A stretch of DNA of 64,000 nucleotides, taken from Bolinopsis microptera. Its lineage: Eukaryota > Ctenophora > Tentaculata > Lobata > Bolinopsidae. Every line of letters begins with the position of its first letter. Positions within the stretch are counted from its first letter, which is position 1. Below, in pieces: positions 29,913 to 62,794 of the stretch. The DNA lies in NCBI RefSeq assembly GCF_026151205.1, contig NC_087072.1, forward strand, positions 15,949,669-16,013,668, in the 5' to 3' direction. A program made the position numbers and the translations under genes. The notes below the pieces were generated by a model. The model saw only the letters and a list, made by a program, of their open reading frames with translations, had not been told where the DNA came from and searched no databases.

Positions 29913-29920
29913 GCTATGCT

Positions 29921-32900
29921 ATGACCTCACCCATCGGTTCACCCGGTGGGTCACCATTTGGAGAGAGAAAATCCTACAAGAAATTCGAGCCGCGGAGGAT
30001 GTCCTCTCGATTCTCTAGGCAGGAATCTGCGAATTCGAGTGATGGAGATGATTTCAGATCGATGGCCAGAAGAATGTCAAAATCTGCTGCAAAGAGCAGT
30101 CACGTGATGGACCCTGCTGCACGACTAGCTGCTCAAAAGAAACTAGAGGCCGACGAGAAGCTCAGGTTACAGAAAGAGATTGAGGACGTGAAGAACAAAA
30201 TGAACAACGTCGAGACAGTCGAGAAAACGGGATTCAATTACGATCCATCCAAAGTAAAGGGTCAGATTGAGATAGAGATAACAGAGGCAGAGGAGGTTGT
30301 GTTTGATGGTCCTCAGGAGAAAGAGCAGGAGTTTAAAGAGTGGTTAGAGGAGATAATGTCACAAGGGTGGAGTGACGAGGTTAAGGAGCTTGTGTCTGGG
30401 AGGAAGAAAGTAACTAAAGCCAATCTGCTGAGAGCGAGAAAGAGGAGTATTGTGAGAAGGTACAGTATTATTGTTCCTGATTTAAAGGACCAGTACCAGC
30501 TTGCTTCAGAGGAAGATGAGTGGACTGAGGAGGAGAAACTCAGACGAGAAGTTGAGCGGAGATTTTTATCTGAGGTTGACTTGGATTACAGCATCGAGAA
30601 GCTGTCCAATGATGCGCAGTGGATGGCAGAGATTCAGGAGTTGGTGGGTAGTAAGAAAATAATTAATCATCATAATCTTGAAAACGCAAGAAGACGTAAT
30701 ATAGTCCGAAGCTCCGAGCAAAAGTATCCTGGATGCAAATACGACCTCATCCTTGAACCTGACGAGTTTACAGATGAGGAGTTAGAAAGGCAAAAGCTTG
30801 ACCGAGAAATCCAGGTGATACGGATCATAGTGGATGACAGCAACGATATTGAAGTCATCGTAGAGTCTCTGAGTAAGAAATGGATTTTTAATCTCGATGA
30901 CTTAGATAAACAGAAAAAGAAAAGAAACAAAAAGAATATATTCAACCTCCTTGTTCGACAGCTTATTAAAGAAGCTAAGGATAAATTCCCTGATCTTGAA
31001 TATCACGTAGATTTAGAAGAGGATGAATACACAGACGAGGAACAGAGGCGGAGAGATTTTGAGGGTGCTGTGAATCATATAGATGCTGAGGTAGGTGGTC
31101 TGTCCACCGAGGAACTAGTTGAAATGTATCCTGACTTAGTTCCCCGATTGGATGAGAATAATCGGGTTGTATCTCGGGACAATGCAGTTCGCTTACTCAA
31201 ACGGGACGCTTTAATTAAAATCTATGGAGAAGGGGATAATTACATGTTGAAGTACCATGAACTCTCCGATGACTGCTTTGAACTTAACGATAGGGGGCTC
31301 GCTCTTCAGTTTATCAACTCCAAAATGGAAGAAATTGATGAAAAGTTGGAAGATAAAGAGAACTTTTTGTCAAATTTCTCGGATGAGCTTGCATACTTTA
31401 GCTCTATATTGGCACATACAAGTTCTGAGAACGTTTGGCAATTTTGTCTAAATCGAATCAAAACCGAAGCAATAAAACTATTTCCAGACTGTGGAATAGA
31501 GAAGCCCACCCCAGAATATGACCTAACCGACGAAGGAAGAGCTTTTATAAAACTAATGGCAGATTTCTCTGAACTGGACTCACTGCTAGAGAATGTTCCA
31601 GAATCGGTTCTTTTAGCAGAGAGTGCCTGGGTGAGACAACGAGCGTTTCTGGAGTCCCTAAAGACCAAAGTGTGTGGAAAGAACATAATAACCGTGCAAA
31701 AGCAGAAGTTGTACGATGAGTTCAAACGAGACTTCCCTGATTTTGACTATGAAGAGATCTTCCCCTTCGAAGATTTCACTTATGGGGAAATGGCAGTCAT
31801 GAAAGCTGAAGAAAAGCAAGCACGCTACAGCGTTATCTGTGAGAAACTTGAACAAGACCTAACGGATTCTAAAATCAGTCTTGATAGAGCTCATAAACGA
31901 TCAGAGCTCGAGGGAGATAGGCTTGAAAACCATCTTGAAGAATCTGAATGGAAAGAGGAGCTGGGCCAAATCAAATTAATAGACAATTTGCCTGTAAACA
32001 GGAAAAATCTTTTCGAATTCAAGGCTCGTAACTTGGTTGCAAAGTACAGAAAAATGCACCAGGAATATGATTTTACAGAATATAATGAAATTCCTCATGA
32101 GTACGAAACAGAAGATGAGGGATTCATCACAGCTGTGGGTTGTCTTACTTGTGAGATTAAAACTGACACTGCTTTCTTTGATAGCAACAGCGAAGGTAGC
32201 AGCCCTATCAAGTATCTCTCAGCGGAAGGAGACCCCTGCCCCCAGGGACCAACCCTTCCCGCTATTCCTGATCTCAGCGATACTGATACAAGCGTTCCCA
32301 GTTTAACACCATCCCCTTATGATCTCCAAAAAGGTAAGTTCTTCGAGGGTATTGAAGAAGAGAAAAGCACTGGAGAAACTCAGAAAAGAACAGAAGACCA
32401 CGTTGATACACAAAACGAAAGAATTCCCGTCATCGACCATGATCAAAGCACCATCAATGTCTTACCTAAGAACAGCATTGACATTAATGCGGATAATCAT
32501 GCTGTTAAACAGCAAGATAATCAGTTGTCCGAGACAACCAATATACATGAAGAAAGTGCAGATCAAAACAATAAACAACTATTTTTGCAACCCAGTGGTG
32601 ACCCTGATATCAACAGTTATAATACAGTTAATAAGGATAGTAATGAGATTGCTAGACAAAAAACTGAACAGAGCGCAGATAATCTTCAAAATGCTAACCT
32701 GATCGATCAAAAACACGGACAGCTTGTTGATGTTAATCAAGCTGATGAAAAGCACAATGGCCTATCGAAAGATAGTATTAAGAAGACCCACTTTGCTGCG
32801 CAACATGACAAAAAGATAACAGAAAATGGCCATGAAGATAGTGGGGACCTGACAGATTGTCTTGATATCCGAGCAACAGAGGACTCTAATTATATCAGTA

Positions 32901-35900
32901 ATATTGGAGTTGCTAAGAGGGCAGGTGGTATTGAGCTTAGTGACTATATTCAGGGAAGCCTACTAGACAATCATATTGATTCAAATGAAGATAATCAAGA
33001 GAATTCTGTGAACACAGACTCTGTCGGGCCACAGGGCAACCGAGGTTCTTCTGAAGAAAGAGACCACAACTGTGTTGATAAGCAACAGAATGTTGAAGCT
33101 GAGTTATCTTCTGAGCAAGATAAAGTTGGCTCCCTCAGTGCTCAAACAAGGAACACAGCCAAAATTGCTGATAACAAGGTCGACGAGCAACCTGCAAGCG
33201 AAGAACTCCACGCTGAATCCAGAGCAGTGGAATCGAATTCTGATAGAAAAGACATCATTCTCCAAGATACGAATCCTGATATTAATAGTTTTGCGAAAAA
33301 GCAACCAGAAAACACGCAACAATGTCCTTCAGTTAAAATTGAAATCCCTACACAATTGCCTGCTGAAAATGAGGATCATCTTGAAGATTTTGCCGATGTT
33401 GTTACACTCAATTTTGACGGAAATCCTAAAAACGATAAACTCGTCGGAGAAATCAGGACCGGAGAATCTGATGCTAATAGAAAAGAAATCATTGTCCAAA
33501 ATGAGAATTCTGAGATTGACAGTGTTGTGAAGATGCAACCAGAAAACTCGCAAGATGAAACTTCTGTTCAGAACGACAAAGCACTGCCTGTGGAGAATAA
33601 AGTGGTGCATCTTGAAGATTTTGCTGACGTTGTGACACTAAACATTCCAGAAGATGTAAGCCCGTCAGGTGAAAATAGTGTTCCACTGGAAAGAGAAGTT
33701 AGTAAGGGACAGTCTATTGATCGTCATCGTTCGAAGGATTCTGTTGATACCGACTTTGTTGCGCAACATAATGCAGATAATCTGATCAATGGTCATGAAG
33801 AAATTGAGGATAATGGTGACCTAACGAATTCCTTTAACAATCAAACTGCAGAGGACGTCTCTAATACCATCAGAGATAGTCAAGTCACCAAGGGTCCGAG
33901 TGAAATGGGACTCAATAGTAAAGTCAAGGAAGACACCAGTTCAGGAAACAATTTCGAACCAACGAGTACTACAAATGATTCTGTGTTGAGTGACTTATCA
34001 GGAGGCTCTTCTGGTCGTCCTGCTGTTGAAATTCAAATCGAGGAATCCGAATTGGATAGTAGCTTTGAAAGAAGTGACCATGCTAACTCTGATGCTGACA
34101 AAATAGATTTCAGAATGTCAGAGCCATCTAGATCATTTATTGAAGGGAACGAAGATCTTATTCTGAATCCTGAAGTTAAATGTTTGTGGAATGAAACCGA
34201 TTCTGTGCTGAACGTAGACAACCAAACGCCCATCATTGGTAATAATGTTAATCCGCATGTTACTTCCATCGAATCTGCTACAACCGTTCCGTCTATTGAA
34301 AAGGCCGTTGACCAGACTCAACAGAGCAAGCGAGGTTTTTCAGAAGAAACTTCCAATAATCAAAACCACGCTGATATCTTTGAAACTAAGCAACAGAATG
34401 TTGAAACTGGGTTAACATCTGAGCAAGACAAAGTTGGCATCCCTAGTCCTCAAGCATTGGATTCAGCCGAACCTGTTGATAATATCATCGACAGAAAATC
34501 TAATAATGTCGACCACGGTGCTGAATCCAGAGTTGTGGAATCGTACGATACTAAAAAAGACAACATTCGCCAGGATACGAAATCTAAGATTGATAGTGCT
34601 CTGAAGAAGCATCCAGATAACGTGCAACAAGACGAAATCACCAAACCATTGCCTAAAAGCACAAACTATAGTCTTGAGACAAAGGCACTTTATGAAAGGA
34701 CTGTCCAGAAAAAGGCAAAAACTGTTAACCAAGAAGAATCTCCTGACACAATTTATACACCGAGTGGTCAGAAAATGATCCCTCAAACCGATCGATCAAC
34801 AGAGGGCACTATTCAGAAGCCTGTTTCTAAATCTACTGATGCACTCGGCAAGAAGAATGCAAATGATCGCATGCGAGATGCAAATAGTCATGATAATGCC
34901 GTCGAACAGCCGGATGTTGAGGTAGATGGATCTGTCGACAGCAGGGTTGAACGTCCTGATGTTTTGTGTCCACAAGGATTTGATTTCGATAACATCGAAG
35001 TTGATGACGATTTGGAGTCTTGCACATTACCTTCCGGTTTAATGCTGACTCCCCATGATCCGATGACTTCACCGTTCCCCAGCCACGGTTACGTTAATCC
35101 TCTCAAGACATTCGAAAGTCGGGAACCAGATGTTAATTCTGCGTCAACTTTATGTAATGGAGTTGCCCACAGAGATTCTGCATATGAATCTAGATCCACT
35201 TTGAAAAGTGAGGACGAAGTCCATCGTCCTTCAGGAAACAATTCGCCTAATGTTGGCCTTGGAATCAAGTTCCAAGCACCCGAAAGCGATGAAACTGAAG
35301 AAATAGAAACTGAAGAAAACAATGTACTGACAGGAACTGGCTTGAATCTTGTGAATCTCGCTGCTTCGAAATCAGAGTCGTTTGGGAGTGATAGCGTGTT
35401 CTTGAACTCATCCCCTAGTCCACAGCTTCTAGAAACTGCTGACGAATTGTCTGAGGCTACTCAATATTCAGGAGCTGAGGATTCAGAGGCTACCGAAGCT
35501 GGTTCGGGCCCTGACGAGATGGAACAAACAGAGTTTTCTGGTAATGACGGAGACACTGAGTACAGTCCTGCCGATGAAAGTCTTCTGAATAAAACCTCAT
35601 CTGATCCACCTAACCAACTTACTTTACCTGGAAAAACTATATCCCAGATGAGGAACTCTTCGACATCTGGATCTTCAGATGATGAAACCGATGACAAAAA
35701 GACCAACAGAAGTCCCAAACGTAAGAAGTTGTCTGGTTCCGTAGCTCCAGAACAGCATCCTATAATGAAGCGACAAGAAGAGTACAACAGACGAAATTCT
35801 ATTTTAGAAAGCAAAAAGTTATCTGCCCTTAGTAAAAAGTCTCTTAATTCAGACGACACCCCTACCGGACGTGCGCCAGATCAAGAAACGACCCCAACCA

Positions 35901-36322
35901 GGGAAGAGTCTTCATCGTCAAGACCTTCCTCGCTGCCAATGAGAAAGCCAGTCAAACGAACTAAAAGTAACGAAGGGGTTGTGACACCCAATTTCGATCA
36001 CATCAAGTCGACATATAAACTAGAAAAACAGAATCCGCTCTACGATCGAAGCAAATACGTCAAAGTTGCTACCCTTGAGGAAAAACATGTGGCATCAGAA
36101 CCCCTACTCGAAGGACTCCTGCCTAAGAAATTTTACGAACAGAAGCTTTCGTATGATCTCAACAAAGATGGCGATGCCGCTAATTCGACACCAAAAGGTC
36201 CCCAGAAAATTCATAACAGAAGCGATTATCATACGACTGGCCATATGTTGTCGGAAATCATGAAGGAACGAAAACTTGATCGTGAAAAGGAAGATAACAT
36301 CATTACAGATTTGGATCTTGCG
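29921..36322 (+). CDS. Giant exon A, 2134 codons, repeat-containing N-terminal block
   Basis: One exon from ATG 29921 to the donor GCG|gtgagt. The ATG is chosen because an acceptor (cgtccag) lies 8 bases before it. In order: a basic Ser-rich head; a helix ending NNVETVEKTGFNYD (about residues 94-108); about seven degenerate repeats of 80-100 residues (about 130-770), each with a helical part, an R-x-x-x-V-R/K segment and an acidic D-E-(W/F/Y)-T-(D/E)-E-E type boundary; a long disordered Gln/Asn/Asp-rich part (about 790-1980) with its own diverged duplications; a basic Ser segment; GLLPKKFYEQKLS (about 2060); TTGH; and ITDLDLA at the donor. I recognise no known family. A cytoskeletal role is inferred only from its relatives B and C and the GAR exons downstream. 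If not spliced, it would end at 36403. Confidence 0.8.
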
Positions 36323-37341
36323 GTGAGTCTACAGCCACTAACATTGCATGATATGATTTCAGCAGCATTCCACATTTTTGTTAATAAATATATGCAACAA
36401 TGATTATTTCAGCATGGTCGAATGTTTATCTTTAATTATGATATCCGATTGATTGTATTATGATAAGCATTTATGAGCACTGAAGCAAGCGAAGTGATCT
36501 CAGCTCTGAATGTTCTAAAGCACTCACGATCAAACTTTGCTGACTGGAGTTATCAGTAGTATGCTGGTTACTGATTCATTATTAGTACCTGAAGCCCCGA
36601 CGATGGCAATTGGAATAAAAGTTTATAATACACCATTTAACGACGCATGTTTCTTGTCAGTTTTCATTTTAATTTTAGTTGTATAATTATAGTTGACTAT
36701 ATTCAAATTCACTCAGCGTTGCTAACAGAGAATATTTAAGTTAAGTATTTGTTAACCGTTCGCGAAAATATTTGATTCTATGAGTTAAATGGATAATGTT
36801 GATGCCATAAAAACAGTTTTGCGAAGCCGTTTGCTTTAAATCAATTAGATTTTTCTTGTAAAGCCCAATAAATAGTGGAATCCTTAAGATTTTTATATAT
36901 TACTCCACAGTCCATGCCAGTTGCGAAAGATTGCCTTGCGTCAACGAATTCAGTTCTTATCATCAATTTTTTGCTCAGAGAGTTGACCCTTTTCCCGTCC
37001 CCCCACTTATAGCATAGAGTTTGGAAATCTAACAAGCTGAGAATTTTAATTACTTTTGAGTTTTTTAAGTTCTTCACGATATTTTCAGCTTTTGGTCGAT
37101 ATGAACCTTAGTAACTACCATTTTTTTCGGCATATTTGATCGTTGGATATTTTTGCAGATTTGATTCTGAAAAAAACTTGTTCGTGTGCACCGATTTTTT
37201 TGTTCGTACATTGTGACAGTCGGCCAACTTCTTTCTAAAAATTCTTTATTTTAATACTAGTATCAGCAGATCAAAAAATATGGAATAAAGCGTGGCCCAA
37301 AGATGGACTGAAGACAAAGATCATGTATCTTTAAGGATTAG
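36323..37341. other. Spacer between exons A and B
   Basis: 1 kb, AT-rich, no exon seen. It could hold a promoter for exon B or be an intron joining A to B in frame (both phase 0). Confidence 0.4.
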
Positions 37342-37344
37342 GAA

Positions 37345-39882
37345 ATGAGCTACAACAGGTTCAAAGAATTGTCTGGAACTAGCAACAAGAAACCGTATCA
37401 ACCGAAGGTTCGAGCTCAAGATGAAGATGGACCTGTCAGTGAATTCAAGCAGTTGCAACAAAAACTCCAACAAAAGAAATCAAAATGGACTGTTCTAGAT
37501 TCAAAGAAGGATGCCCTGAAGAAATTGGCCGATGAAGAAAAGGAACGTTTGCGGAGAATTGAGGAGCTGAAAAATTCCATGCAGCATGTAGACACCAAAG
37601 AAATGGAGTTTGGGTATGATGAAGAAACACTCGCTGCTTTGAGAGAAAAGAGGAGGCTAGAAGAAGAAGAAAGACTAAGACAAATTCAACAAGAAGAGGA
37701 CCGATTGCGAAAACTAGAGGAAGAGCGTCAGGCTATAGAAGCAAAAGAAGCAAAACGTGTTGCTGACGAAGAAGCAAGGCGGTTAGCCAGACAAAAATCA
37801 AAGGAAGAAGCAAACCGGCTTGCTAAAGAAGCAAAGCGGTTAGCTGAAGAAGAAGCACAACAACTTGCTGAAGAAGAAGCAAAGCGGTTAGCCGAAGAAG
37901 AAACACGACGACTTGCTGAAGAAGAAGCAAAGCGTCTAGATGAAGAAGCAAAGCGGCTAGCTGAAGAAGAAGCACGGCGACTTGCTGAAGAAGAAGCAAA
38001 ACAGCTTGCTGAAGAAGCAAGGCGGTTAGCTGAAGAAGAAGCACGACGACTTGCTGAAGAAGAGGCAAGACAGATTGCTGAGAAAGAAGCAAAACAGCTT
38101 GCTGAAGAAGCAAAGCGGTTATCTGAAGAAGAAGCACGACGACTTGCTGAAGAAGAAGCAAAGCGGTTAGCTGAAGAAGAGGCAAGACAGGTTGCCGAGG
38201 AAGAAGCAAAGCAGCTATATGAAGAAGCAAAGCGGTTAGCTGAAGAAGCAAAGCGGTTGTTAGCTGAAGAAGAAGCACGACGACTTGCCGAAGAGGAAGC
38301 AAAGCGGTTAGCTGAAGAAGAGGCAAGACAGGTTGCCGAGGAAGAAGCAAAGCAGCTAGATGAAGAAGCAAAGCGGTTAGCTAAAGAAGCAAAGCGGTTA
38401 GCCGAAGAAGAAGCACAACGACTTGCTAAAGAAGAGGCAACGCGATTAGCTGAAGAGGAAGCAAGTCGACTTGCTGAAGAAGAAGCAAAGCGGTTAGCTG
38501 AAGAAGAAGCAAGTCGACTTGCTGAAGAAGAAGCAAAGCGGTTAGCTGAAGAAGAGGCAAGACATATTGCTGAAGAAAAAGCACGACGACTTGCCGAAGA
38601 AGCAAAGCGGGTAGCTGAAGAAGAAGCACAACGACTTGCTAAAGAAGAGGCAAAGCGGTTAGCTGAAGAAGAAGCACGACGAATTGCTGGGGAAGAAGCA
38701 AGACGGCTTGCTGAAAAAGAAACAAAACGAATTGCTGATGAAGAAGCACAACGACTTGCTAAAGAAGAGGCAAAGCGGTTAGCTGAAGAAGAAGCACGAC
38801 GAATTGCTGGGGAAGAAGCAAGACGGCTTGCTGAAAAAGAAACAAAACGAATTGCTGATGAAGAAGCACGAGGAATTGCTGGAGAAGAAGCAAGACGGCT
38901 TGCTGAAGAAGAAACAAAACGAATTGCCGATGAAGAAGCAAGACGGATTGCTGATGCAGATGCAAAACAGATAGCTGAAGAAGAAGCAAAACAGCTGGCC
39001 GAAGCAAAACGGGTTGCCGAGGAATTAGCAAGGCGGATTGCGCAAGAAGAAATCAGTCGATTAGCTGATGAACAAGCAATGAGGTTGGTCAGAGAAGAAA
39101 TTGACCGTCTCGCTGAGGAAGAGCTAAAACAGCTTACTGAAGATGATACAGAATGGCTTGATGAAGCGGACGCGAGAGGACACGACTCCGATCCGCTCGG
39201 GAATCTTTTCAGAAAGAATTCCAACTCATTCTTTCACAGCCATAAAGAGAAGTCAGGTAGCATAGGGGACCTACGACGCAGCTCCAGGGAATTTCTTGCC
39301 AAAAGTTTGGAAAACATCACTGGAACCATTTCTGACGATGAAGAACTTCTTAAAGAAGCCGTTGAGTTGCTAGAAAAAGAACATGAACTAGAAGAATCTC
39401 GCAAACGGAAGACCACCAGATTACCACATCCTGGGAAGCACGCTCGACTCGAAAAAGCAAGATCGCTTGCTCTGGAGGCTGAAAAAGAACGGCGACTTTC
39501 AGCTGAATCGCCCGTGACTACGCGATCTCGACAACAGTCAATAGTTGAAAAAAGAATATCAAGGTTACGGAAACCTACTTCCTACGCCTCCAAAATCAGA
39601 CGAGTTAAATCATGTGAAAACATGTTAGACTTGTTTCACTCTAATGAGGCCCCGAAACTCACTTCAAAACCCTTGCTGAACGGCTTGCTCCCTGATCAGT
39701 TCTACCAACAAAAACTCTCCCAAATGTCCTCTTACAACAGCGAGGTGGACCTCAGTAGTGTTTCCCTGGACATGGGAGCAAAGACAACCGGCCACAAGTA
39801 CTGGAACCACATCATGAAAAAGACACTCTTCAGAAGAACAGACAGCTCGGCACATGACATTGAGACTGACCTTGACAGCGTG
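37345..39882 (+). CDS. Large exon B, 846 codons, long charged helix of 8-residue repeats
   Basis: The ATG lies 3 bases after an AG (attag|GAAATG) and reads on to GTG|gtgagt. Residues about 1-95 carry a helix ending QHVDTKEMEFGYDEE, matching exons A and C. From about 97 to 605 the protein is a long run of A-(K/R)-R-L-A-E-E-E octads, very rich in Glu, Lys, Arg and Ala; this predicts a single stable alpha-helix or long coiled coil acting as a rod. A basic Ser region follows (RRVKSCENMLDLF), then GLLPDQFYQQKLS, TTGHKYWNHIMKK and ETDLDSV at the donor. GAA before the ATG keeps the frame open, so B could also be an internal phase-0 cassette after exon A. Its family is not recognised. Confidence 0.85.
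37735..39170 (+). repeat. 24-bp coding minisatellite inside exon B
   Basis: The DNA repeats in 24-base units (GAAGAAGCAAAGCGGTTAGC and variants) encoding A-K-R-L-A-E-E-E. Two 120-bp blocks at about 38639-38758 and 38759-38878 are nearly identical, a recent duplication. Occasional 21-base units shift the helix register. The minus strand stays open for 498 codons here only because of the repeat. Confidence 0.9.
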
Positions 39883-40324: not shown

Positions 40325-40447
40325 ATTATCGACAAGAAACATGATACTGTGGTGTCTACTTCAAGTAGCAAAATTTTGGAAGACCAGCCAGCAACTTCGT
40401 CTCCCGAAGTACACAGAGTGCAGCCCATCGCAGAAAAGTCAAAATGT
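40325..40447 (+). CDS. Small exon X after exon B
   Basis: Forty-one codons between gttttttag and gtgagt, phase 0 at both ends. Reads IIDKKHDTVVSTSSSKILED then QPATSSPEVHRVQPIAEKSK and C. The good splice sites, length divisible by three and open frame support it. It follows exon B in frame (DLDSV then IIDKK). The next acceptor is unknown; exon C or the GAR exon would both fit. Confidence 0.6.
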
Positions 40448-42515: not shown

Positions 42516-42527
42516 TCCCATATAATA

Positions 42528-44456
42528 ATGGCGTTTCTTAATTCCCCGATTCTAAAAGCTCGCCGACTTGGGGCCTTATCTCCAGAGACGGAGAGAAAAT
42601 ACAAACTTGCTCGAGATCGCCCTCATAAGCCAGATCTGAGTGACTTTAAGAAACTGCATGAGAGTATAGCTAAAACTCAAAAAAGCTTTGCTCTTTTCGA
42701 CATGAAAGCAAGCGAAAACGCTTTAAAGAGAATAAATGAAGAGACAAAAAAACACACAGCAAAACTTGATATCATGAAGGAGGGGTTCAACAAAGTCAAA
42801 GTGAACGAGAAAGTTGGATTTGAGTTTGATGAACAAGTAGTTAAAGATGTGAGGGAGAGAATCATGTGCAGCATGATAGATCCTCTTGGAGGAATGTCTA
42901 CGTCCAGTATCTCCGTTTCAAGGAGGTCTTCAAGATGCTCTGATCTGGACCTCACCGCAACGTCAGCCACACTTCTACCTGACCTAACTGAGGACAGTTC
43001 CACCTTGAAACCTCAGTTCTGTCAGGACACTGAAGATTTGTTCGACACTGACACAGAGAGTATTCTGTCTGACTTTGAGATGGAAATCATTAACGCTTCT
43101 TTGATATCTCATGATTTCCCTGATTACAAATTTCCCACTCAAAGAAAAATAGAGCAGCTAGGAATGGATATAAAAAGTCCTACTTCCCACTTATCCCAGA
43201 AAAGTATCATACTGTCATCGTCGGGCATGTTCTCTATAGATCACGATGAAGGAGAGTATGCTATAGTAAATGAGGTTAGGGTCTCTCCAAACGAACACAA
43301 TGAAATTTCTGATCATGTGGAGGAAATACTTTCATCCTCAGATACAGAAAATGATATATCTGAGACGTATTACTCTAATCCAGTAGTCAAGGAAAGTCAA
43401 GACGGTGGAGAGGGCTTGGGAATGACAACAGTGAGCAGCGAGCCAGTTTGTATCACGTGTTCCTCTTGGGACGCCTGCACGTGGCTTTGTTCACAAGAGG
43501 ATAACGAAGATATTGTAAAACACCATCTAAACATGGTCATTCAAGAAGACAAGAGCCGACCTGTTCAAATAGCAGTCTTTAAATCTCCTATTTTGGCTCG
43601 TAAGGTATCGACTAACGAGAATGCGGAAAAGCTTGAGATTACGGGCGTGGATCTAGTTCACTCAAACCCAGGCCTAGTCAAGGTTGACATCCCCGGAAAT
43701 AATCAAACATTGCAGACTTGTGTCACGCAATTGGAAGAATCCGACTTTTATGAATCTGAAGAAGGGTCCTCGTTTGAGGAATTCACAACACCTGGAGAAT
43801 TAGAATCAGATAAAGATGGCGGAGCACTCCATACCTACCTTGAGAACTTGAACAAGTATGATAATTTAGACTCCGTATCTGTGTGTGAGTCTCTGGACAC
43901 CAAATCACTGGAATCTCTTGACTTTGAGAGAATGGAACTTATGGTATCTGGCGGAGAGAAGATGGTTACATTTGAAACTAATCCTGCCCAGAAAAACAGA
44001 CGGCTAGGTGCGATGAAGAACATGAGAAATGAGAAAGTGAAAAGTCTCGTAAAGCAGGCATCCAACGTGCTTCACTCTGCTTCAGCTGACTTTGCTAGAT
44101 TTGGTCTGAAGAGGAGTGGAAGCTCAGCGAATCTAAAAGTAGCTAGATCAAGCTCGACCACATCATTCAACAGGCGGAGTTACATACCAGCCCCTAACTA
44201 TAACCTCACAGCTTCTCTTTTTCCGGGTAAAAAGGAGAAACTTAATCTGGACACCAGGCTTAAACTTCGAAACAAAGATCTTATCGAGGTTGAGCCACTC
44301 CCAAGGTGGGCTAAGAAACCTATATTTGCCACTACAACAGCAGGCCACAAGGCTTGGTACGAGAGAGCACAGGATATGATAGAGGGAAGACGCAAGGAGA
44401 TAGCAAACATGAATACTTTACAGGAAGATTCTGGTCATCAAGACCTCGACATCATT
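42528..44456 (+). CDS. Large exon C, 643 codons, relative of exons A and B
   Basis: Acceptor ctcgcag at 42515 is followed by four open codons and then ATG 42528; it reads to ATT|gtgagt. The first 110 residues form a helix ending KVKVNEKVGFEFDEQ, equivalent to the motif in A and B. The middle is acidic and Ser-rich, probably disordered. Near the end are a basic Ser stretch (LKRSGSSANLK), PRWAKKPIF, TTAGHKAWYERAQDMIEG (equivalent to TTGH in A and B) and QDLDII at the donor. The function is not recognised. It starts and ends in phase 0, so it can be a first coding exon or a cassette. Confidence 0.85.
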
Positions 44457-45321: not shown

Positions 45322-46113
45322 ATGACTTGTTGTGAGTCCGAATCACCTATTACTCCTAAAAGGAGACGTTCATTCGAAAAATCTACCTCTGAAAACGGAC
45401 TTAATTTATCAGAGGAGCCAGTTTTGATTCCCTTACTCGAAGATTTGGCTATATGGCTGTCTGGTTTTCTTTACACCGAAATCGCCCCCGAAAATTTCAT
45501 AGAACTTTTTGAAGACGGGTCAAGGTTTTGTAAATTGGCCTCGATACTCCATGACAAAGCGGTTGAGTACAAAGAGACGACTCAGCATTCACACCCACTA
45601 CCGAGCTATGCTATCAGAAAATGGTACGAAACCCCCAAAAAAGGTTCATTTTTCTGCAGAGATAATGTCTGCAAATTTATAAACTGGTGTAAACACTTTG
45701 GAGTGTCAGAGATATGCTTGTTTGAATCAAATGATATCGTGGAACACAAATCAGTTCGAGCTTTAAGAAATGTACTCATTTGTTTGTTGGACGTCGGTAA
45801 AATCGGTGTAAAACACGGAATCGAGCCCAGCGAACTTGTTAGAATAGATCTCGAAATAGAGCAGGAAATTCAGGCTGAACTACTTCGTGTGAAGAACTCT
45901 GCATTGCCAACACGAAAGACCGCCATTCCAAGGAAGAACATTCCAAGGAAGAACTCCTCTCTTAACTCCTCCCTCGCTTCTTCATCTGAACCCCCGTCCA
46001 GCGAAGAAGAAGAAGAAGAAGAGGAAGAAAGACCTGAACCTGTTTCTAGTCCTGAACCAGACGAAGAGGAATTGGAGAGGATCAGACTCAAACTCCTAAC
46101 TCTTGAAGAGCAG
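45322..46113 (+). CDS. GAS2-family exon D: calponin-homology domain
   Basis: 264 codons from ATG 45322 to CAG|gtactt, phase 0. Residues about 38-165 form a single type-3 CH domain, as in GAS2 (DLAIWLSGFL, FCKLASIL, FFCRDNVCKFINWCKHFGV, CLFESNDIVEHK, VLICLLDVGKIGVKHGIEP). A Lys/Ser linker and a Glu run follow, ending LTLEEQ. Joined to the GAR exons at 60270 and 62689 it gives a protein of about 335 residues, close to vertebrate GAS2. GAS2 proteins link actin (CH) and microtubules (GAR). An acceptor AG lies 14 bases before the ATG and is followed by GCTATG, as before exon A. The intron to the GAR exon is 14 kb. Confidence 0.9.
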
Positions 46114-53524: not shown

Positions 53525-53563
53525 GGTGTGTACGTGTGTGTGTGCGTGTGTGTGTGTGTGTGT
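53525..53563. repeat. (TG)n microsatellite
   Basis: Interrupted TG repeat with C substitutions. Confidence 0.9.
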
Positions 53564-54589
53564 ATTGCACGTGTTGTGCGTGGTAACAGCACGTGTTATA
53601 TGTTATTGTATTCACACACTTAGTCTAATGTAAATATTTACCTAAACCAGGAAGTATATTAGTGTGTACTTGCCTTGAAATGTCGTCCCCTGTTTTTCAC
53701 ATGATATACGTGATCATGGGACCGAATGAAGTACAGTGATTACTCCGAAAATAACTAATGTAGTTATATTCATCTTCAAAACATGCATAATGTGCTTCAT
53801 TTTACATCATTTTCACACGGTCACTAAGTGTTAAACATTTCATACGTTATTTTCAAACAATGTAAATTGAATATCAATTGAGATGGTCACACACTTTCCA
53901 AAATATCATGTTTTGATTATGTGTAACACACGTTTCGCTAGACGGCGTCCAAAAAGTGCCAAACCCAAACATACCGAATATATTAATATAAGCTCACATA
54001 AGCTTGCACGTAAGCTTGCACGTGCATTTAATAAGTTATTATATGCTCATTTCATTAGACGACGATTAGGTATAATGATTGGTTATAATGAGTCCGCCGT
54101 CAGGACGATCAGGGTGCTTTCACTTGCTGACCCCTGCTTGAAGAGTGCCTGAAGTTGAGGAGTAAGTCTGAAGAGAGAATGTCTGCATAAAGTTTTAGCG
54201 ATAGTCTGATGAGGTAGTGTGAAGTTTTGGAGGTTATAAAATATAGACAGGGTAGTCTAGTTGGTTGGATATAAACTGCCTAAACTGATAACCCTGAAAC
54301 AGTCAGTTCCTGCCCGGAAGAGAACAGGGAACCACTAAAACTATCTCTTGGTTATAAACTGTCTAAAGTCTAAACTGATAACCGTCCTGAAACGTGGGTT
54401 TCGGAATTCCGTGCACTATACCGATCACTTTGAAATCCCTATCTCGAACATTCTGCCAACTAAAACCATCACTCGGTTATAACCAAAGTTGGATGTACAC
54501 ATGTAAGCGCTGAACTCTGACTTTGACCTATCATCAAGTTAAACTCTAACTACCGTTATCTGTTAGTTAAACTCACCACAGAGAACCAC

Positions 54590-54594
<5 letters not shown>

Positions 54595-54638
<44 letters not shown>
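54595..54638. repeat. (GA)n microsatellite
   Basis: About 21 GA units; complementary to the (CT)n tract 170 bp downstream. Confidence 0.95.
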
Positions 54639-54640
<2 letters not shown>

Positions 54641-54806
54641 ATCTCCAGTGACAGGGTGGGGTGCCAAGCTTTTAACTGCCCCTTATCTCTATTCTCTCTC
54701 TCGCACTTTGTGTCCCGACTCCCCTGACTGTATTTCTAACTGTCCGCTCCTAATTATGCTGGAGATCCTGTCATCACTGGTTGTAGTCAGATCACCCTGC
54801 TGCTTC

Positions 54807-54808
<2 letters not shown>

Positions 54809-54850
<42 letters not shown>
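54809..54850. repeat. (CT)n microsatellite
   Basis: About 20 CT units followed by GAGAGAG, so it can also fold on itself. Confidence 0.95.
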
Positions 54851-54853
<3 letters not shown>

Positions 54854-57800
54854 AGAGTTAACTTACTAAACTTTACAACTTACTAAACTTACCCCTTTTG
54901 TGTCAGGGATCTCCCATCTCAGTCTGGAAAGAGGGGTTTTTGTGAGTGTATTACTCAGTTTCTATTTATACCACGTTGCTGCGAGGGAATATTTCTCTGG
55001 CCTTAGAGGGAGTTCGGGAGGTATTTTGTGTTGTATGTGCCAGCCAATGAATTTACTGGGTTTCCAAGTGACTAACCAATCAGGCCTTGTTCCAGCGCCC
55101 ACGTGCTCTTCTCATGCACACGTGACTGCTGTTGACAAGCGTCAACACCTGCAGAGTTGAGCGGATTGGAGCGGACTCGCTGTTGGACTGTATTACCTAA
55201 TACTAGATATTAGAGGGTATATCTGCGTCAGTGGACTCATTCCGGTTAAATATCCTTAATAGGAGTTTTGATCCAGCCCTTGTCATCCTACGTTTTTAGA
55301 CTGATGGGAAGAATGAACATGGTATTTATAAGCGTCATATTGATTGGTTATAGAGGAAGTGGGTGATGTCATCTGCACGCTTGCGTAAACATGGGGAACA
55401 TTGACCATGTTATTATTGTAGGAACAAAAGAAGAGTTATTTTAAGTGAAGAGTTACAACTACAATTCAAGATACATTGTTCATAAGTAAACAATACTTGG
55501 TACACAAAGTAGTCTTTATTTTGACAGCAGAGGACACAGACTAACCTGTGATAACAATTAGACAATTAATTAGACAACTAGTTAGCTAATACGGCGAGAT
55601 AATACTGTATCTAAGACTTAAGAGGGCTGACTTCAAGGAGGTTAGGGCGACTTCTTCAAGTAGTGCATATCATTTATATTAGTGTCTGTAGAATACACAA
55701 CCTCAACGGTGCTTTGTTGGATTGTGGACACCCTAGAGGTTAGCCTAAGAGATGCCTATTTGGAGAGATGTTACATTAACTGAAGATTATAAAGCGAGGC
55801 GGGTGTTTGTAAAATAGAGGGCTACCAACCGGGCTGGTAATGGTTTATGCAATATGCATCTCACGTGTAGTTCCCGTATCTCCAAGTAGAGAATAAGAAT
55901 GAGTATCTTCCAGTACCAATGAGTCCCCGCCAAATATAGCCCTTTCGCAGATTCAATCTTTATACACTTCAAGTCAAGGTTAATACCCTTCTCTTCACTT
56001 ACATTGACAATATGATGATCTTGACCTCTGCATAATGTATAAGCACCTAGCTTGTGCCCTGCCCCTCCCAAAGCCCTATAGAAACATTTGAGAGCACACT
56101 GGCTAAATTAGGAATAACACGGTGTATTATTCTTAACATCCTGAGCCAGTTCTCTTCCTCTTCCTCTTTGAGTCCGCTGTATTACCGGAGATACAGCCTG
56201 GTAGTGGTTATGAAGAGTGTTGCGGGGTACTTCTTAGTAACGAGTCACGTGGGAATGTGTGCGGGAATGTGCGTGTAAACCCACCCTGTGTAAACCCAGT
56301 GTGTCCCGGCAGTGTGTAAAGGTGTGTAAGGTTGTCATGGTGATGTCAGAGTGTGTGGTAGTGTGTGGGCTAGCAAGCAGAGTTGCGTGACTAGGGAGCT
56401 AACTGGTTCACTGTTCAGCTGAGTAGATATGAGGTAACTTCCTTCTCACAAGTTTACTATTATATTGGCCGAGTCTGGAATACTTTTAAGGCATAATGGT
56501 CTTCAATTTTCAAATATATACAAAGATGATGATATGCTTTTGACTCACCCTTCCGGTCAAAGAGGGTGTCAAAATAAGTTTCTTTCTTGTAACATTTTTT
56601 TTAAATACAGAGCTTTTATTTTGATGTGTTTTGAACATAAGTCATAGGTCACAAATATTGCTAATAGTGAACAGTAAATGTGGCTAGATATAATAGCCAG
56701 TATTTAATAAAGCTATAGTGAATAGTAAATAATAAATGAGACTAACATTGAGTAAAGCGATAGTAAATGTTGAAACTTATTATTAATGACCCCTTCACTC
56801 TGTCACATACAGACAAAAAATCATCAGAAAGGTGGTGAAAAGGAGGCTATGAGTAGGGTTACAAAACTTTCCTAACTTCCATATAAGGAAAAAGGAAGCA
56901 TATCTTTAAGTTTCTGCTTTGATCTGCTGTAAAGGGGTAGGGAGAGTATCTGCTAGTCTCTTGATATGCTGTAACCAGACTGTAATATTAAATGGGGCGT
57001 GGGTGTGACCAGAAAATAGCTTTATTTCAACTCTTTAACTGGCCGCTTCTCCACTTCCTCATCAAAGAGAAACTACTTTTGAACTTTTAAAAACGCAGTT
57101 TTGAATTTCAGTGTCGCTGCTTCATGTCCACCGAAACTCCAGAACGTTTTACGTCACAGTCCCTCATTCTCCACATTCAGATGCAGCGGGGGAGTAGTAG
57201 CTCCTGTTGCTTCCCGCAAATGTGTCAAGAACTTGACTAGACTTTGTGACTTGTACCAACCTAGACTTTGTGAAGTGTTTAATGTGAGACTTTGTGCTGG
57301 CAGACTGCCAGAAGTAGGGCCCCGGTTTAGCATGTAGTTAAGGAAGTACAGAATTAGTGTACACATAACTGTTTGGTGCGGGTGTATTATTACTCAGCAG
57401 TACTAGCAGTACTAGTAGTAGTACTAGTAGTATAGGTTAGTATATAGCTACTTGTCCCCCAGTGTGTATGTACTGTGTGTATTACAGAGCAGCATCTCTC
57501 AAAGGGGTGTTGTGAAATATTTGTAGGTCCTTAGCACAGAGGGAATTAACGAGAATATGTGAGACTAAGTACAAAGTGACCCTCAACTGTTTGTCACATT
57601 AACCAGGATGATATAGTGAACTACTCGCTCAGCTGTCAGAATACTGATCAGATACACTGGTATGGACTGTCATGTGTAGGTACATCTTCTAGATATTATC
57701 TAGCAGTACGACATACGAATTAGCTATCGGAGCCACTTGTAGTTAGGGCGGCTCCTGCGTTCCTTGAGGATGTCCTGAAAATGTGACAGAGGAATTTGTC

Positions 57801-58532
57801 TTTAGAGGAATGCAGCTGATTGAGGTTTTAGTGGCAGTTAGTTGACTTCGGAATTCGGATAGGAAATATACGTATTAGGGTATTATTTGTATGGTATAGA
57901 AATCTGAAGGGTGGTCACTGGTCATTATTATGTTTCAGCTTGGTATGTGAAAAGTCTCCTGGTAGAGATGCACAACAAATTGATCACTACATCACCCGAC
58001 TCCCCTGGCTATAAGAACCATACATTGTAGGCCATTACTTGCCTGTACGTGAGGGAAGAGGGTTCACTGTAATCTGGGAAAGTAATGAATCTCCCCAATC
58101 TTACATACTCTCAGTAGCACTTGTAGATGTGGTTGCAGCAGCGCACATAAACCTGCACCCTACCCACTACCCAAGTATTAACATGGGCGCAGCACAGTGA
58201 CAACAGCAACACAGTTGATTCCGTTGTAAATTAAATACGTTCTCCACCACTTCAACAAGTCAAGAAACCGGCTATACTTCTGCTGAGTGAGACCGTGTTT
58301 TCTATTTTTATGCACATAGTTGACGGGTACTGGTTGTGTACTAATATACACTCCACTGAGAGAGATATAGAGAGAGAGAGAGTGCGGGGTAGAAGCACAC
58401 ACAGACAGTGATTATTGTGTTTGGGAGGACTCAGTGCTGGGAGAACATGTCCTGCTGGTGTGTATATTGTGGGTATTATCTACTGTACCACCTGATACCT
58501 GTCACTTATCTCCTGTCACAAGATGTAATCAC

Positions 58533-58600
58533 TGAGATATCACGTGGTCTATCATTGAGATATCACGTGGTCTATCATTGAGATGTCATGTGGTCTGCTA
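58533..58600. repeat. 23-bp tandem repeat, three copies
   Basis: Unit beginning TGAGATATCACGTGGTCTAT repeats three times, the last diverged. The first two copies carry CACGTG (E-box); the last reads CATGTG. Confidence 0.8.
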
Positions 58601-60269
58601 GACAGCTGACTATGTTGTTACAGTTCTGACTTAGATTTAACTTTCCCAACTTTAATACTTTAAATGTTTCCGATTTAAGTCTTTTAACAAAAAGACTGAA
58701 GAGCCTGCAAATCAATATCGGATGTACAGTTTTCTAAAAATAACAAACATTTTTTGTTTAGTCCTAGAAATATGTAGTGATAAAAATAAATTTAGTTTGA
58801 TAGAAATATGTAACAATATTAACTGATAAATGACATGACTTAATACTGACATTTAAACTGATTAACGTTAACACTGACAGACACTAACACAAACATTGAC
58901 AGATCCACGACAGACGACAGCAGTTACTGAAAATGTTTTTCAGACACACAAAACTTCCTTTGTCAGAAGCAGACAAGAGGGTACAGTAAACTTTCGTAGA
59001 TAATAAATATTAGATCTAGTGGACTAGATAGTTGATAGTAGATATTCCTATCATCACGCTTTTCATCACACTTTCATACTTTTCATCACACATTTTTATG
59101 GTTCTTTTAAATGCTCATTATCTAATTGAGAGACTGTCATATATATCCATAAACTTTTTGTTCATTTACCCATGCGAAACAACTAGTTGATTATTGGGCA
59201 CCTTGCTTACCAACCTTAAAAAGATACCACACCAAATTGTCCGTATTTTAGCGTGGAAACAATGATTGCAGTTAGATATGTAACTACTTTTAAGGTCATT
59301 GATCACGGTCAATGAGCAGCGTCAGATGTTAGTAATAATATTAAACGGTGTCATTATACCTTTGACAAAGTTGATTTTGAACGATTAGTAGCATCGACTG
59401 ACAATTCAAATGTATCGGCTGAATAATATATCGACCACTGTGGTCAGCAAGTGCTGACAGATAGCCCTTCTCCAAATTCCATCGCTTGCAAAAGGCACAT
59501 TCTCCACAATCCTCCCTTACACAAATCCATTAAATTAAGGAAATATGTATTGCCACTATTATAATACAATACATGCTTTGCTGAAAATGGTTCACTTTTT
59601 AAGTGAGGCGTGGTTGTGCCAAGTTAACTGCGTACATTGTTTATGGGATAATTACAGTTATTCGCTACTTCGGCTGCTTACAATCTCTGTTATGCGTGGT
59701 GGAGGCATTACTGCATTACCAATTTACATTTACAAGAGGTGGCTTTGTCTCTTCTAATCTACATAAAGAAGTAGTATTAATGCCCACAAAAGTGACGTGA
59801 CTCTTCATGAGCACTAGAACCTGAATTTTAAAAATAGCTGTTTATATAATGCTACAGTTTTTATTGTGTGGCGCTGGGGTTATACAATTATTTATTTGTG
59901 TGTGTGATACCATCACGTAAATAATAGGATAACAAGGAAATGTTAATTGTTGAAATCTTGTTAATGAGAGGATTTGATTAGCCAGGAGTAGTGCAAGTCA
60001 TTATAGTTAATTAGGGCTAATTAGAATTAATTATCCATGTCAAAATTTCCTAGTTCTGATAATTTGATTGAATATAACCGATAAGCTCAAAACTCGACAA
60101 CTCCAATGATCATGGCATGTTTGGCATAAATTATAAAGCTGAAGCCGCTGTTATCTGTTTTACACGTGTAAAGTATTTTCATACTCCCCATACTTTTAAC
60201 ACCTGCTAATTTCAAAACCATATAATTATGCTAATTAATTATCCAATTAACAAGCTATTACCTCTCCAG

Positions 60270-60377
60270 GTGCGAGCTATTGTATCGAGGTGCACGTGTA
60301 AAACCCCCTTCCAGCTGGACCGAGTAGGAGACGGCAAATACAAACTACCTCACACTAGTCAGATCTTCTTTGTCAGG
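60270..60377 (+). CDS. GAS2 exon: GAR domain, first half
   Basis: Thirty-six codons, phase 0 at both ends (ctctccag / gtaagt). Reads VRAIVSRCTCKTPFQLDRVG then DGKYKLPHTSQIFFVR, the start of the GAS2-related (GAR) microtubule-binding domain, with the C-x-C pair involved in metal binding in this family. It joins in frame to exon D (LEEQ) and equally to A, B, X and C. Confidence 0.93.
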
Positions 60378-62688
60378 GTAAGTTTTTTACTTAGTTCTTT
60401 ACTTCTATTTAGTTTTATACTTATTTCTTTATCCAAACTTAGTTCTTTACATACACCTGCTACATGAAGAGGTCTCCTCCTAGTCGTTGGAGTGGCCTGC
60501 ATCACACACATCTTTTCTACGGCGTAACATGTTCCTCCATTCTACTCGTTTAGACTCGTTTAGAACTTAGTTCTTTACTTATACTAATTGTAATCCTCAT
60601 CATCCCTTCACTTGTTCACATTGCATTACACTTATTCTGTAGTTGAGCTTATTAAAGAGTCGCACAGAAAGCTAAACCTGCTACAGTAATTACTCCATTG
60701 TACTAATCTAAAGCTTGTGTGTTTGATGACGTGTTTTCCAGAAAACGAATAACTATTGTTAATGTAAACTATACACAACACTCCAAACACAATACAATAA
60801 ATACACGACTATTCAAACTTTAGAAACTTTAGCTCAAGCGCCCTCATTGAATTTAACGATGCTTTGTCTGTCTTCACTTTTCTGCCCCTTAATTAATGTG
60901 ATATTTTATACAACCTTTAATCTAATCTGGACTCGTGCGCGCTGTCAATTATAGTGTCTGGAGCCGCAAGTTTTTCATTATCTAGAATTAGAAGTGGAAG
61001 TTTCGTGTATAATTTTCGGGGGAAATATATTCGTCCAATTTGAGTCCTTGCACACATAATCGTATTACATAATCAGGCTGATGACGTAAAAGAGGACAAT
61101 GCAGTGCTAGCAAAACGGGGACCATGTGGTGTAATCCCCATTGTCACCCCAACTCACCCTGTATCACCTCCCTCACCATGTACATAATTCAAGAGTACAC
61201 ACAACACGCACAGTGGTATTTATACATTCCGCACCCCTGTATTCTGATGTACAATATAATTCAGTGTAATCTGTTCATACATTGTTCAGTTTGAAAAGTA
61301 TGTGAGACTTTTTGGTGCGGATAATTCCTTTCCATTTTGTAATGGCGCTGGTTAGCACTATCTTACCCGGTATGATCACAAACATTATGTACATTATGCT
61401 GGTCTAGGAAAATATTATCCCACTGTACATAATTAGATTGTCATACCAAAATTTGGTGTTTGTGAAAAAAGGTTTTTGAAGGTTCGGGTGTTCGATTAAT
61501 TGATTTACATCGGATGTTTGTGTGTGCCGGTATCAAATGGAATGCAATTTACTCCTTGTCACTGATCAGGAATTCCGCTTCGCACTAATTATAGCATTAC
61601 ATTTTTCCCATGAATTTCCAAGGATCTCCATTCCATTTGAAACAGTTCTGAGATTCCATTTGTGTTCCAACTTGAGCCATGTAAGTGGGTCATCATGATG
61701 TTCCTAATAGGTGTACTGTAACCAATAGCTGCAATAGTGCACCCATTTACCGTGGGAAGCAGAATACAAGTCGGGGAATGGACCAAACTTCTGATGATTA
61801 GCAACTTACGAGCGCGCGCATGGTGCTTTACTTGATGTAAATCTGCAGCAGTCTTCATAATTTTGAAGAGGGACGCGCGCACGTTTTATTGCTAGCTTTG
61901 GCGCGTATACGCACCATTGATACCAATTCTCTGTAGTCTGTTCTAGTAGTTTGACTCACTATATATCAAGCTTGGCTGTTGGCCCAACTGCTATGTTGAT
62001 TCTTCCATATTAGCACTATATTTACATGTCTCTTATCTTGCAAGACGCCAAAGCTGCAGACTGCAGACTAAATCACCCTACAGTCAGTCTATTATGTGAA
62101 ACCGTCTCGAATGACCGCAGTGAATATGTCACCATCCAGACATGTTATGTAACATGAGAACTGCTACCGACCTCAGCAGACACGACATTAAACACTGGCT
62201 CTTCATCCTTAAAGCATAGGATCATCCATTCCAACCTTATTTCCATAATTCCATTACCATAACTGTGCGCTTGAGTCATACCCTAAATATCGTGTTTTGT
62301 CATCTTGAGTGCCATTATCTGCTTCACACCTTTGAGTCTGATTGTTCTTTGTTGCGGTTACAGTTCACCTCTTCATGGCTTATTATTCTAACCATATTAT
62401 ACCGGTATGTTTAAGTTGTCTTCAAGTCTATACATAACTGATACGTTTGGTTTTCTACCATTTGCTGAAAAGATTCTTCAGCTGGTAAACCGTTTTTATA
62501 GACTTACAGTCTGCCAAACAATTATCACCGCAGTTAGCATCTGCATTTGAATCGTCGCCCGCCACTAATCACTAACCAACCTCACCATTTCACGCAAACA
62601 AACACACTACCCACTGTCTGCAAATTATCACCTCTCTCGCTGGAATTTCCCTCCACTTACTTCCTGGTAGTAACAAATCTATTTTCAG
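60378..62688. other. Intron inside the GAR domain
   Basis: 2.3 kb without an exon. Loose T-rich repeats (TTAGTTCTTTACTT) at 60390-60590. Confidence 0.5.
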
Positions 62689-62794
62689 ATCCTGAGGAAC
62701 CACGTGATGGTGCGAGTAGGAGGAGGGTGGGACACTCTCGACCACTTCATCGCCAAACACGACCCCTGTAGAATGAAGTTCAAGCAGATTGTCG
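62689..62794 (+). CDS. GAS2 exon: GAR domain, second half
   Basis: Thirty-five codons plus one base. Reads [20 protein letters not shown] then [15 protein letters not shown], the diagnostic GAR core ([19 protein letters not shown]). Splicing at G|gttagt continues the protein beyond the window or to an unrecognised exon; without splicing, GGT TAG gives a stop right after the domain (62797-62799). Confidence 0.93.

What the first reader, a model, noticed from the sequence alone, without database searches (positions are those of the whole stretch)
29913..62794. Several large N-terminal blocks may share one GAR C-terminus
Seen: exons A, B, X, C and D all end in phase 0, four of them at gtgagt donors, none has its own terminal exon in view, and the GAR exon at 60270 starts in phase 0. 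Known: the GAR domain binds microtubules and usually follows a CH domain in the GAS2 family. Inferred: A, B and C, which lack a CH domain, may be alternative N-termini of a GAS2 locus, giving GAR proteins of about 700, 900 and 2200 residues. I know of no described GAS2 locus with this layout.
Basis: partly seen in the sequence, partly recalled or inferred. Interest (0 to 1): 0.88.

Follow-up and report, generated by a model that had tools for sequence, protein, structure and literature searches.

The report
Tandem alternative heads before one GAR
In a comb-jelly genome, three related giant protein-coding exons lie next to the normal actin-binding start of a cytoskeleton linker gene and probably plug into the same microtubule-binding end, which would let one gene hang a microtubule grip on four different heads; the joints are not yet seen in RNA.

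Summary
The sequence features are real. Exons A (29921-36322), B (37345-39882), X (40325-40447), C (42528-44456) and D (45322-46113) end in phase 0, four at GTGAGT, and GAR exon 60270-60377 begins in phase 0. New here: the N-termini of A, B and C are homologous, and searches of the 264.65-Mb genome (by size and largest chromosome the ctenophore Bolinopsis microptera) found no further copy. Coding signal stops at or near the donors, not at the downstream stops. D is a GAS2-type CH exon (best solved match GAS2, E 1e-30). The GAS2-like paralogue on C2 has two near-duplicate exons that enter its GAR exon in phase 0. The genome carries a probable spliced-leader array, and a YAG lies 3-14 nt before all four start codons, so each block could be a first exon. 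Not shown: that A, B or C join GAR rather than short exons or intronic poly(A) sites of their own (four AATAAA after A; a Pfam junction test did not discriminate). Verdict: probable variable-first-exon cluster feeding a GAS2 C-terminus, about 0.6; junction RNA would settle it.

The parts
29921..36322 (+). Exon A: 2134-codon head; N-terminal motif shared with B and C, a series of ~85-residue repeats (residues 131-746; three clear, four weak at 15-19% identity), long acidic low-complexity part, tail shared with B; ends phase 0 at GTGAGT. Likely 3' splice site 29912|29913, 8 nt before the ATG
37345..39882 (+). Exon B: 846-codon head; N-terminal motif, ~500 residues of E/A/K/R/L-rich repeat, tail shared with A; ends phase 0 at GTGAGT. 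A TAG ends 3 nt before the ATG
40325..40447 (+). Exon X: candidate 41-codon cassette exon, phase 0 at both ends, GTGAGT donor; codon score reached by 0.4% of 933 open windows in the large intron
42528..44456 (+). Exon C: 643-codon head; N-terminal motif shared with A and B, acidic serine-rich body, TTAGH...DLD tail; ends phase 0 at GTGAGT. A CAG ends 12 nt before the ATG
45322..46113 (+). Exon D: 264 codons, GAS2-type CH domain; ends phase 0 at GTACTT; the orthodox GAS2 head. A CAG ends 14 nt before the ATG
60270..60377 (+). GAR exon 1: 36 codons, phase 0 in and out, GTAAGT donor; begins at position 5 of the PF02187 model
62689..62794 (+). GAR exon 2: 106 nt, leaves in phase 1; continues in frame into a tail exon beyond the window (G + AC CCT = D P A R P P R Q)

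Best explanation
This is a variable-first-exon cluster on a GAS2-like gene. Three diverged paralogous head exons (A, B, C) and the orthodox CH head (D) each begin with their own start codon just after a possible 3' splice site, and each ends in phase 0 at a 5' splice site. Each is most likely spliced to the same constant part: GAR exon 1, GAR exon 2 and a basic tail beyond the window. With D the product is an actin-microtubule cross-linker; with A, B or C it is a microtubule-binding protein with no CH domain, so the head would carry it to something other than F-actin. Because the genome has a probable spliced-leader array, the first-exon choice could be made by trans-splicing to the site before each ATG and need not use four promoters. 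SHOWN: exon frames, paralogy of the A/B/C N-termini and of the A/B tails, the CH and GAR domains, end of coding signal at or near the donors, the tandem array with leader-like units. INFERRED: that the donors are used, that A, B and C join GAR exon 1, trans-splicing at these sites, and all function.
For: Homology: N-terminal 130 residues of A-B, A-C and B-C are reached by 0 of 1000 shuffles each, and so are the A-B tails; a whole-genome search with B's first 113 residues returns itself, then C (E 0.027) and A (E 0.058), then E 5.4 elsewhere. Donors: max-scoring coding segments end at 36322, 39879, 44453 and 46113; read-through codons score -5.6, -7.4, -0.25 and -5.1 bits; A-B similarity ends there (past the donor 449 of 1000 shuffles do as well); exact GTGAGT has probability 0.043 per copy given codons for V-S. 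Target: with strict limits (at least 60 nt) the phase-0-entry candidates between 39882 and 60200 that do not overlap C or X score at most 0.4, X scores 11.3 and GAR exon 1 scores 6.7; no candidate internal exon in the A-B or C-D gaps even with relaxed limits. Register: A LDLA|, B LDSV|, C LDII| match the [LIVM][DE]xx| that precedes the GAR in D (LEEQ), in both C2 exons (LDEQ, LDEK) and in MACF1 (IEDE); base rate 150 of 3747 in-frame positions. Precedent: C2 exons 19988053-19987865 and 19987816-19987679, 48 nt apart, encode the same CH end and both leave in phase 0 towards the GAR exon. Trans-splicing: probable 591-bp spliced-leader array on C3; a YAG ends 3-14 nt before all four ATGs, against 415 of 1133 window ATGs with one 0-14 nt before.
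Against: No transcript was available. The A-B gap has 4 AATAAA against 0.8 expected (P 0.009), as if A could end in its own intron. Relaxed scans give tiny candidate exons before GAR with nearly the same score (6.3, 6.3, 6.0 against 7.5 for the best candidate overlapping GAR exon 1), and short terminal exons cannot be excluded. The Pfam junction test failed to discriminate: A +1.7, B +1.7, C +0.9, D +2.2, X 0 bits, but 4 of 20 decoy tails reach A and B, 8 of 20 reach C and 3 of 20 reach D. The tail of C is not significantly similar to A (231 of 1000) or B (45 of 1000). The [LIVM][DE] register was noticed after the fact, A/B/C are not independent, and X lacks it. B also scores up to 91 against an unrelated coiled coil (7 of 92 controls at 75 or more). 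The upstream gene holds an in-frame GTGAGT at about 26980 where coding signal goes on, so the motif alone is no proof. The YAG pattern is weak (chance 0.018).
Confidence: 0.6

Rival explanations
1. A, B and C are separate tandemly duplicated genes (possibly in one spliced-leader-processed transcript unit with D-GAR), each ending in its own short 3' exon or at an intronic poly(A) site; only D joins GAR.
For: In the ctenophore Hormiphora trans-spliced leaders are on at least 56% of long reads and nested genes are common (PMC8527503, passages and section 37). A-B gap has 4 AATAAA against 0.8 expected. Short terminal-exon candidates exist in every gap scanned, e.g. 36979-37017. Blocks A, B and C match no Pfam family over its cut-off.
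Against: No AATAAA in the C-D gap; no internal-exon candidate in the A-B or C-D gaps; three donors in one phase with the same six letters in diverged copies, as expected for one shared acceptor; register of LDxx| with known GAR boundaries; no A/B/C copy found elsewhere.
Confidence: 0.25
2. A, B, X and C are consecutive exons of one giant transcript (A-B-X-C-GAR, over 3,600 residues of head) that skips D, not alternatives.
For: All are phase 0 and the sequence between the possible acceptor and the ATG is in frame for B (1 codon) and C (4 codons).
Against: Acceptor scores are poor for B (-3.8) and C (-1.0); each block starts with an ATG with a purine at -3, which an internal exon does not need; A, B and C repeat the same N-terminal motif. 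D's possible acceptor scores poorly too (-4.0).
Confidence: 0.1
3. The donors are not used: each block is a single-exon gene ending at the read-through stop (36403, 39939, 44471).
For: Read-through adds only 26, 18 and 4 codons and AATAAA follow A.
Against: Read-through codons score negative in all three (C's four codons nearly neutral), GTGAGT is the same to the letter in phase 0, and A-B similarity stops at the donor.
Confidence: 0.05

Closest known systems
GAS2 family (GAS2, GAS2L1-3, Drosophila Pigs)
   Same: D + GAR: one GAS2-type CH domain in front of a GAR domain, then a basic tail with SxIP-like motifs. CH with GAS2 domain is reported as the usual pairing in distant unicellular relatives too (PMC9145010, passages).
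   Different: The isoforms named in the passages I saw (GAS2L1 and GAS2L2, alpha and beta, differing in length; PMC7791176) are not described there as having giant CH-less heads.
Spectraplakin alternative N-termini (MACF1, BPAG1/dystonin)
   Same: A GAR-bearing locus some of whose isoforms lack one or both CH domains through other starts or splicing (PMC5979291, passages).
   Different: Spectraplakins have a long plakin/spectrin part between head and GAR (same paper; background knowledge); here each head would abut the GAR. Tandem paralogous giant first exons were not mentioned in those passages.
Variable-first-exon clusters (UGT1, GCNT2, clustered protocadherins)
   Same: Tandem array of homologous first exons upstream of a constant set (PMC1885805, abstract and outline).
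   Different: In UGT1 each variable exon has its own promoter (PMC3325998, abstract start in listing). Here the copies have diverged so that only their ends are alike, an unrelated CH head (D) shares the position, and spliced-leader sites may stand in for promoters.
C2 GAS2-like paralogue of the same genome (C2:19.985-19.988 Mb)
   Same: Two near-duplicate exons, both phase 0, precede one GAR exon.
   Different: Small internal exons for the end of the CH domain, probably mutually exclusive; no long coding block in the about 27 kb upstream that I scanned by codon use.

Membership tests
GAS2 family (CH + GAR) | GAS2-type (type 3) CH domain | tested here: met
   For D only: PF00307 39.6 bits, best solved chain GAS2 9kbx E 1.1e-30. 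For A, B and C: no CH found, so products with these heads would not be CH-GAR proteins.
GAS2 family (CH + GAR) | GAR domain | tested here: met
   PF02187 104.4 bits for joined exons 60270-60377 and 62689-62793; solved matches MACF1 and GAS2 GAR.
GAS2 family (CH + GAR) | Tail with SxIP-type end-binding motif (GAS2L/Pigs) | tested here: inconclusive
   TSNIPR and RSRIPV in reading frames beyond the window; short motif that also occurs in other parts, and the joint between the two tail segments is unresolved.
Variable-first-exon cluster | Tandem homologous first exons with one exit phase | tested here: met
   A, B, C N-termini 0 of 1000 shuffles; all phase 0. Tail homology met for A-B only. That they are FIRST exons is inferred.
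Variable-first-exon cluster | Each variable exon spliced to one constant set | tested here: inconclusive
   Exon scans and register agree; the Pfam junction test does not discriminate; no RNA.
Variable-first-exon cluster | A promoter (or leader site) per variable exon | not testable with these tools
   A YAG 3-14 nt before each ATG and a probable leader array in the genome fit leader sites; not shown.
Spectraplakin | Spectrin repeats and EF hands before GAR | tested here: not met
   No such domain in A-D; between 46113 and 60270 on the + strand no codon-like segment scoring 10 or more except GA-repeat stretches near 54.6 kb, a scan that would miss small exons.

The most novel reading that the evidence does not exclude
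A comb-jelly GAS2 locus works as a cytoskeletal head-swapping gene: spliced-leader trans-splicing picks one of four tandem head exons (three of them an otherwise unknown paralogous family of 640 to 2130 residues) and joins it to one constant GAR/microtubule-tip module, so that microtubules are tethered to actin (D) or to other, unknown partners (A, B, C).
Probability: 0.5. Interest if true: 0.68.

Novelty: new variant of a known kind. Interest (0 to 1): 0.52.

Why it matters
If the junctions are real, an early-branching animal uses the protocadherin/UGT1 gene layout for a cytoskeletal linker, shows how a GAR domain can be freed from its usual CH partner, and gives a natural set of head domains to compare on one microtubule module. 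It would also show leader trans-splicing acting as a first-exon selector rather than only as a 5' cap donor.

Tried and rejected
Whole-genome searches with A and with C (E up to 0.001) found only themselves; the tail of B found itself and one hit at E 2.5. So no A/B/C-GAR fusion elsewhere could serve as a witness. These searches scored 3, 5, 11 and 6 candidates and would miss very diverged copies.

Pfam junction test: rejected as evidence, decoys do as well. Codon scan alone: GAR exons themselves score below zero, so it cannot exclude small exons. The codon table was trained on the blocks up to their donors, a mild circularity; retrained with the downstream tail, A's segment ends at 36316 instead of 36322.

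Repeats of A (cut by eye): a PDB profile search gave DEK at E 0.03 and carboxypeptidase M at E 0.36; AlphaFold2 on one repeat with the seven as alignment gave a helical model, mean pLDDT 76, pTM 0.60; Foldseek's best was E 3.4; Pfam gave six families with one of 7 members each; whole A had nothing in PDB at 0.1. Head function left open.

Spliced-leader-like motif inside the window: 6 hits at 3 mismatches, as by chance. No tRNA or Rfam family in the window.

Identity of the genome: inferred from size and largest chromosome; scaffold count differs (346 in print, 232 here), so the assembly version may differ. A glutamate-receptor protein had the ML032222a ligand-binding chains (Mnemiopsis, recalled) among its strong solved matches, at ranks 11-13, not at the top.

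Spectraplakin labels of the other two GAR loci on C1: an EF-hand pair is confirmed for the one at 2.43 Mb; spectrin repeats were not found by Pfam in the segments tried at either locus, so that label is by eye and recall for the one at 20.57 Mb.

Literature, full-text searches: 'GAS2 + GAR domain + alternative first exon' 0 papers; 'ctenophore + Gas2 + microtubule' 2, listing only; 'pickled eggs / Gas2 / alternative promoter / isoforms' (3 of 4) 10 papers, 8 listed, listing only; 'Gas2-like / spectraplakin / GAR domain / CH domain / isoforms' (4 of 5) 13 papers, 12 listed; 'GAS2 / GAR domain / lacking the CH domain' (2 of 3) 19 papers, 12 listed. I saw no described locus of this layout in the listings and in the passages opened (PMC9145010, PMC7791176, PMC4732294, PMC5979291, PMC12084551); I read none of these papers whole, and the library lacks most subscription journals.
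Full report
WHAT IS THERE. The window is C1:15949669-16013668 of a genome of 264,652,675 bases in 232 contigs, with C1 of 26,206,493 bases. A printed table gives Bolinopsis microptera 265 Mb, largest chromosome 26.2 Mb, GC 38.5% (PMC11797021, passages), so I take this to be that ctenophore; scaffold counts differ (346 against 232). Consistent with a ctenophore, the genome has a tandem array of mostly 591-bp units on C3 (13511055-13533403; 36 listed pattern matches) whose units hold ...CAACACTACTATATAACAAATAATTTGAG|GTAAG, very like the printed Hormiphora leader that ends in AATTTGAG (PMC8527503, section 37); the stretch after the leader gives a sub-threshold SmY match (26 bits, gathering 39, E 0.0044), as an Sm-type RNA might. 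The pattern with up to one mismatch has 354 genome matches against 64 for the reversed control.

The exon limits of the finding are right. A, B, C and D start with ATG at 29921, 37345, 42528 and 45322 and leave in phase 0; GAR exon 1 enters in phase 0. The GAR gene does not end in the window: GAR exon 2 leaves in phase 1 and would join in frame to an exon at 64040 (window-equivalent), with further coding at 64889-66022. The joint between these two tail segments did not resolve in phase (by eye), so the tail is at least about 200 residues and perhaps 580. Products would then be roughly 2,400 to 2,800 (A), 1,100 to 1,500 (B) and 900 to 1,300 residues (C), not 2,200, 900 and 700.

A, B AND C ARE ONE FAMILY. 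This was not in the finding. The first 130 residues align pairwise above all of 1000 shuffles (scores 93, 75 and 92), around a motif of the kind K..M..V...EK.GF.YD. Against 92 other segments of this genome (A's own interior included), A never exceeds 68 and C never 59, but B reaches 91 with a coiled coil, so B's similarity alone would be weak. A genome-wide search with B's N-terminus ranks C and A next after itself. The tails of A and B are clearly related (0 of 1000; with B's repeat masked, about residues 1894-2132 of A align with 615-844 of B); C's tail is not significantly so (231 and 45 of 1000), although it keeps TTAGH and DLD. D shows no similarity to them. No other copy was found.

DO THE BLOCKS END AT THE DONORS? 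Most likely. Maximal coding segments end at or one codon before each donor (two codons before for A after retraining). The read-through codons to the stops score negative, C's four almost neutral, and past the donor A and B are no more alike than shuffles (449 of 1000 reach the score). GTGAGT is never found in phase inside the 3,887 codons of A-D and once in 5,648 dicodons of six other stretches. A counter-example exists: the upstream gene has an in-frame GTGAGT near 26980 in what looks like its last exon.

WHERE DO THEY GO? D most likely goes to GAR exon 1: the same junction exists in the C2 paralogue (LDEQ| and LDEK| before VQACAAECNC) and the coil runs on (LEEQ|VRAIVSRC). For A, B and C the case is indirect: one exit phase; GAR exon 1 is the best phase-0 entry exon downstream of C with strict limits (18 candidates in 39882-60200; those outside C and X at most 0.4; GAR exon 1, scored apart, 6.7); the last four residues LDLA, LDSV and LDII match the [LIVM][DE]xx seen before the GAR in D, both C2 exons and MACF1, base rate 4.0% (150 of 3747). 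I hold this last point as suggestive only, because I noticed it after looking and because the three are related; X does not have it. The formal version, Pfam score of joined exons, failed its control. Relaxed exon scans bring in mini-exons nearly as good as GAR exon 1. Four AATAAA in the 1,022-nt A-B gap (0.8 expected, P 0.009) may mean that A also, or only, ends there.

X. It is probably a real exon: codon score 7.6 for 41 codons, reached by 0.4% of 933 open windows in the large intron, acceptor score 2.7, donor score only 1.0. It could sit between B and GAR, or after A.

HOW IT WOULD WORK. A YAG ends 8, 3, 12 and 14 nt before the ATGs of A, B, C and D; 415 of 1133 window ATGs have one within 0-14 nt, so 4 of 4 has chance 0.018, and by my splice weights only A's looks strong (4.1; B -3.8, C -1.0, D -4.0). 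In a genome with a leader array these may be trans-splice sites, so that any block can be the first exon of an mRNA. D binds F-actin and GAR binds microtubules by analogy with GAS2 (PMC12084551, passages); TSNIP and RSRIP in the tail may bind EB proteins as in Pigs (PMC4732294, passages). What A, B and C bind is unknown: A has a series of helical ~85-residue repeats, three clear and four weak, without a known fold, B a long charged repeat, C an acidic body.

PLACE AMONG KNOWN THINGS. D-GAR looks like an ordinary GAS2-family gene. The A/B/C heads would make CH-less GAR proteins, which are known from spectraplakin isoforms but, in the listings and passages I saw, not from tandem giant first exons of a GAS2 gene. 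The layout works like UGT1 or protocadherin clusters. Membership in that class is not proven, because the shared junction was not observed.

SCORES (judgement). Donors real about 0.9; A/B/C paralogy about 0.95; shared GAR acceptor about 0.6 to 0.65; alternative first exons rather than a chain about 0.85 given sharing.

Noticed in passing
G000 C3:13511055-13533403 (L028 = C3:13515000-13516600): Tandem array of mostly 591-bp units (36 listed matches), each with a probable spliced-leader RNA gene (leader ending AAATAATTTGAG before GTAAG, then a region with a sub-threshold SmY match in the three units read).
   Followed up: partly
G000 C2:19988053-19987865 and C2:19987816-19987679 (minus strand): Two near-duplicate exons, 48 nt apart, encoding the end of the CH domain and both leaving in phase 0 before the GAR exon: probable mutually exclusive exons in the GAS2-like paralogue.
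   Followed up: partly
window 7408-8550 (minus strand): Open stretch of a voltage-gated potassium channel (BTB_2 and Ion_trans).
   Followed up: no
window 19487-27044 (plus strand): Exons of an unidentified gene upstream of A (six stretches, no Pfam match over cut-off); its probable last exon 26886-27044 holds an in-frame GTGAGT that seems to be coding, with AATAAA soon after.
   Followed up: partly
G000 C1:20560816-20564820 (L011) and C1:2424893-2427244 (L012): Upstream of the two other GAR exons on C1 lie giant open coding-like segments (4,005 and 2,352 bp); the second is a long coiled coil and an EF-hand pair follows it. Possible giant exons of spectraplakin-like genes.
   Followed up: partly
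G000, 32 matches on several contigs (loci L013-L018 for six of them): Many ionotropic glutamate receptor ligand-binding matches; 10 of the 32 lie in open frames of 900 codons or more, so those genes seem to lack introns.
   Followed up: no
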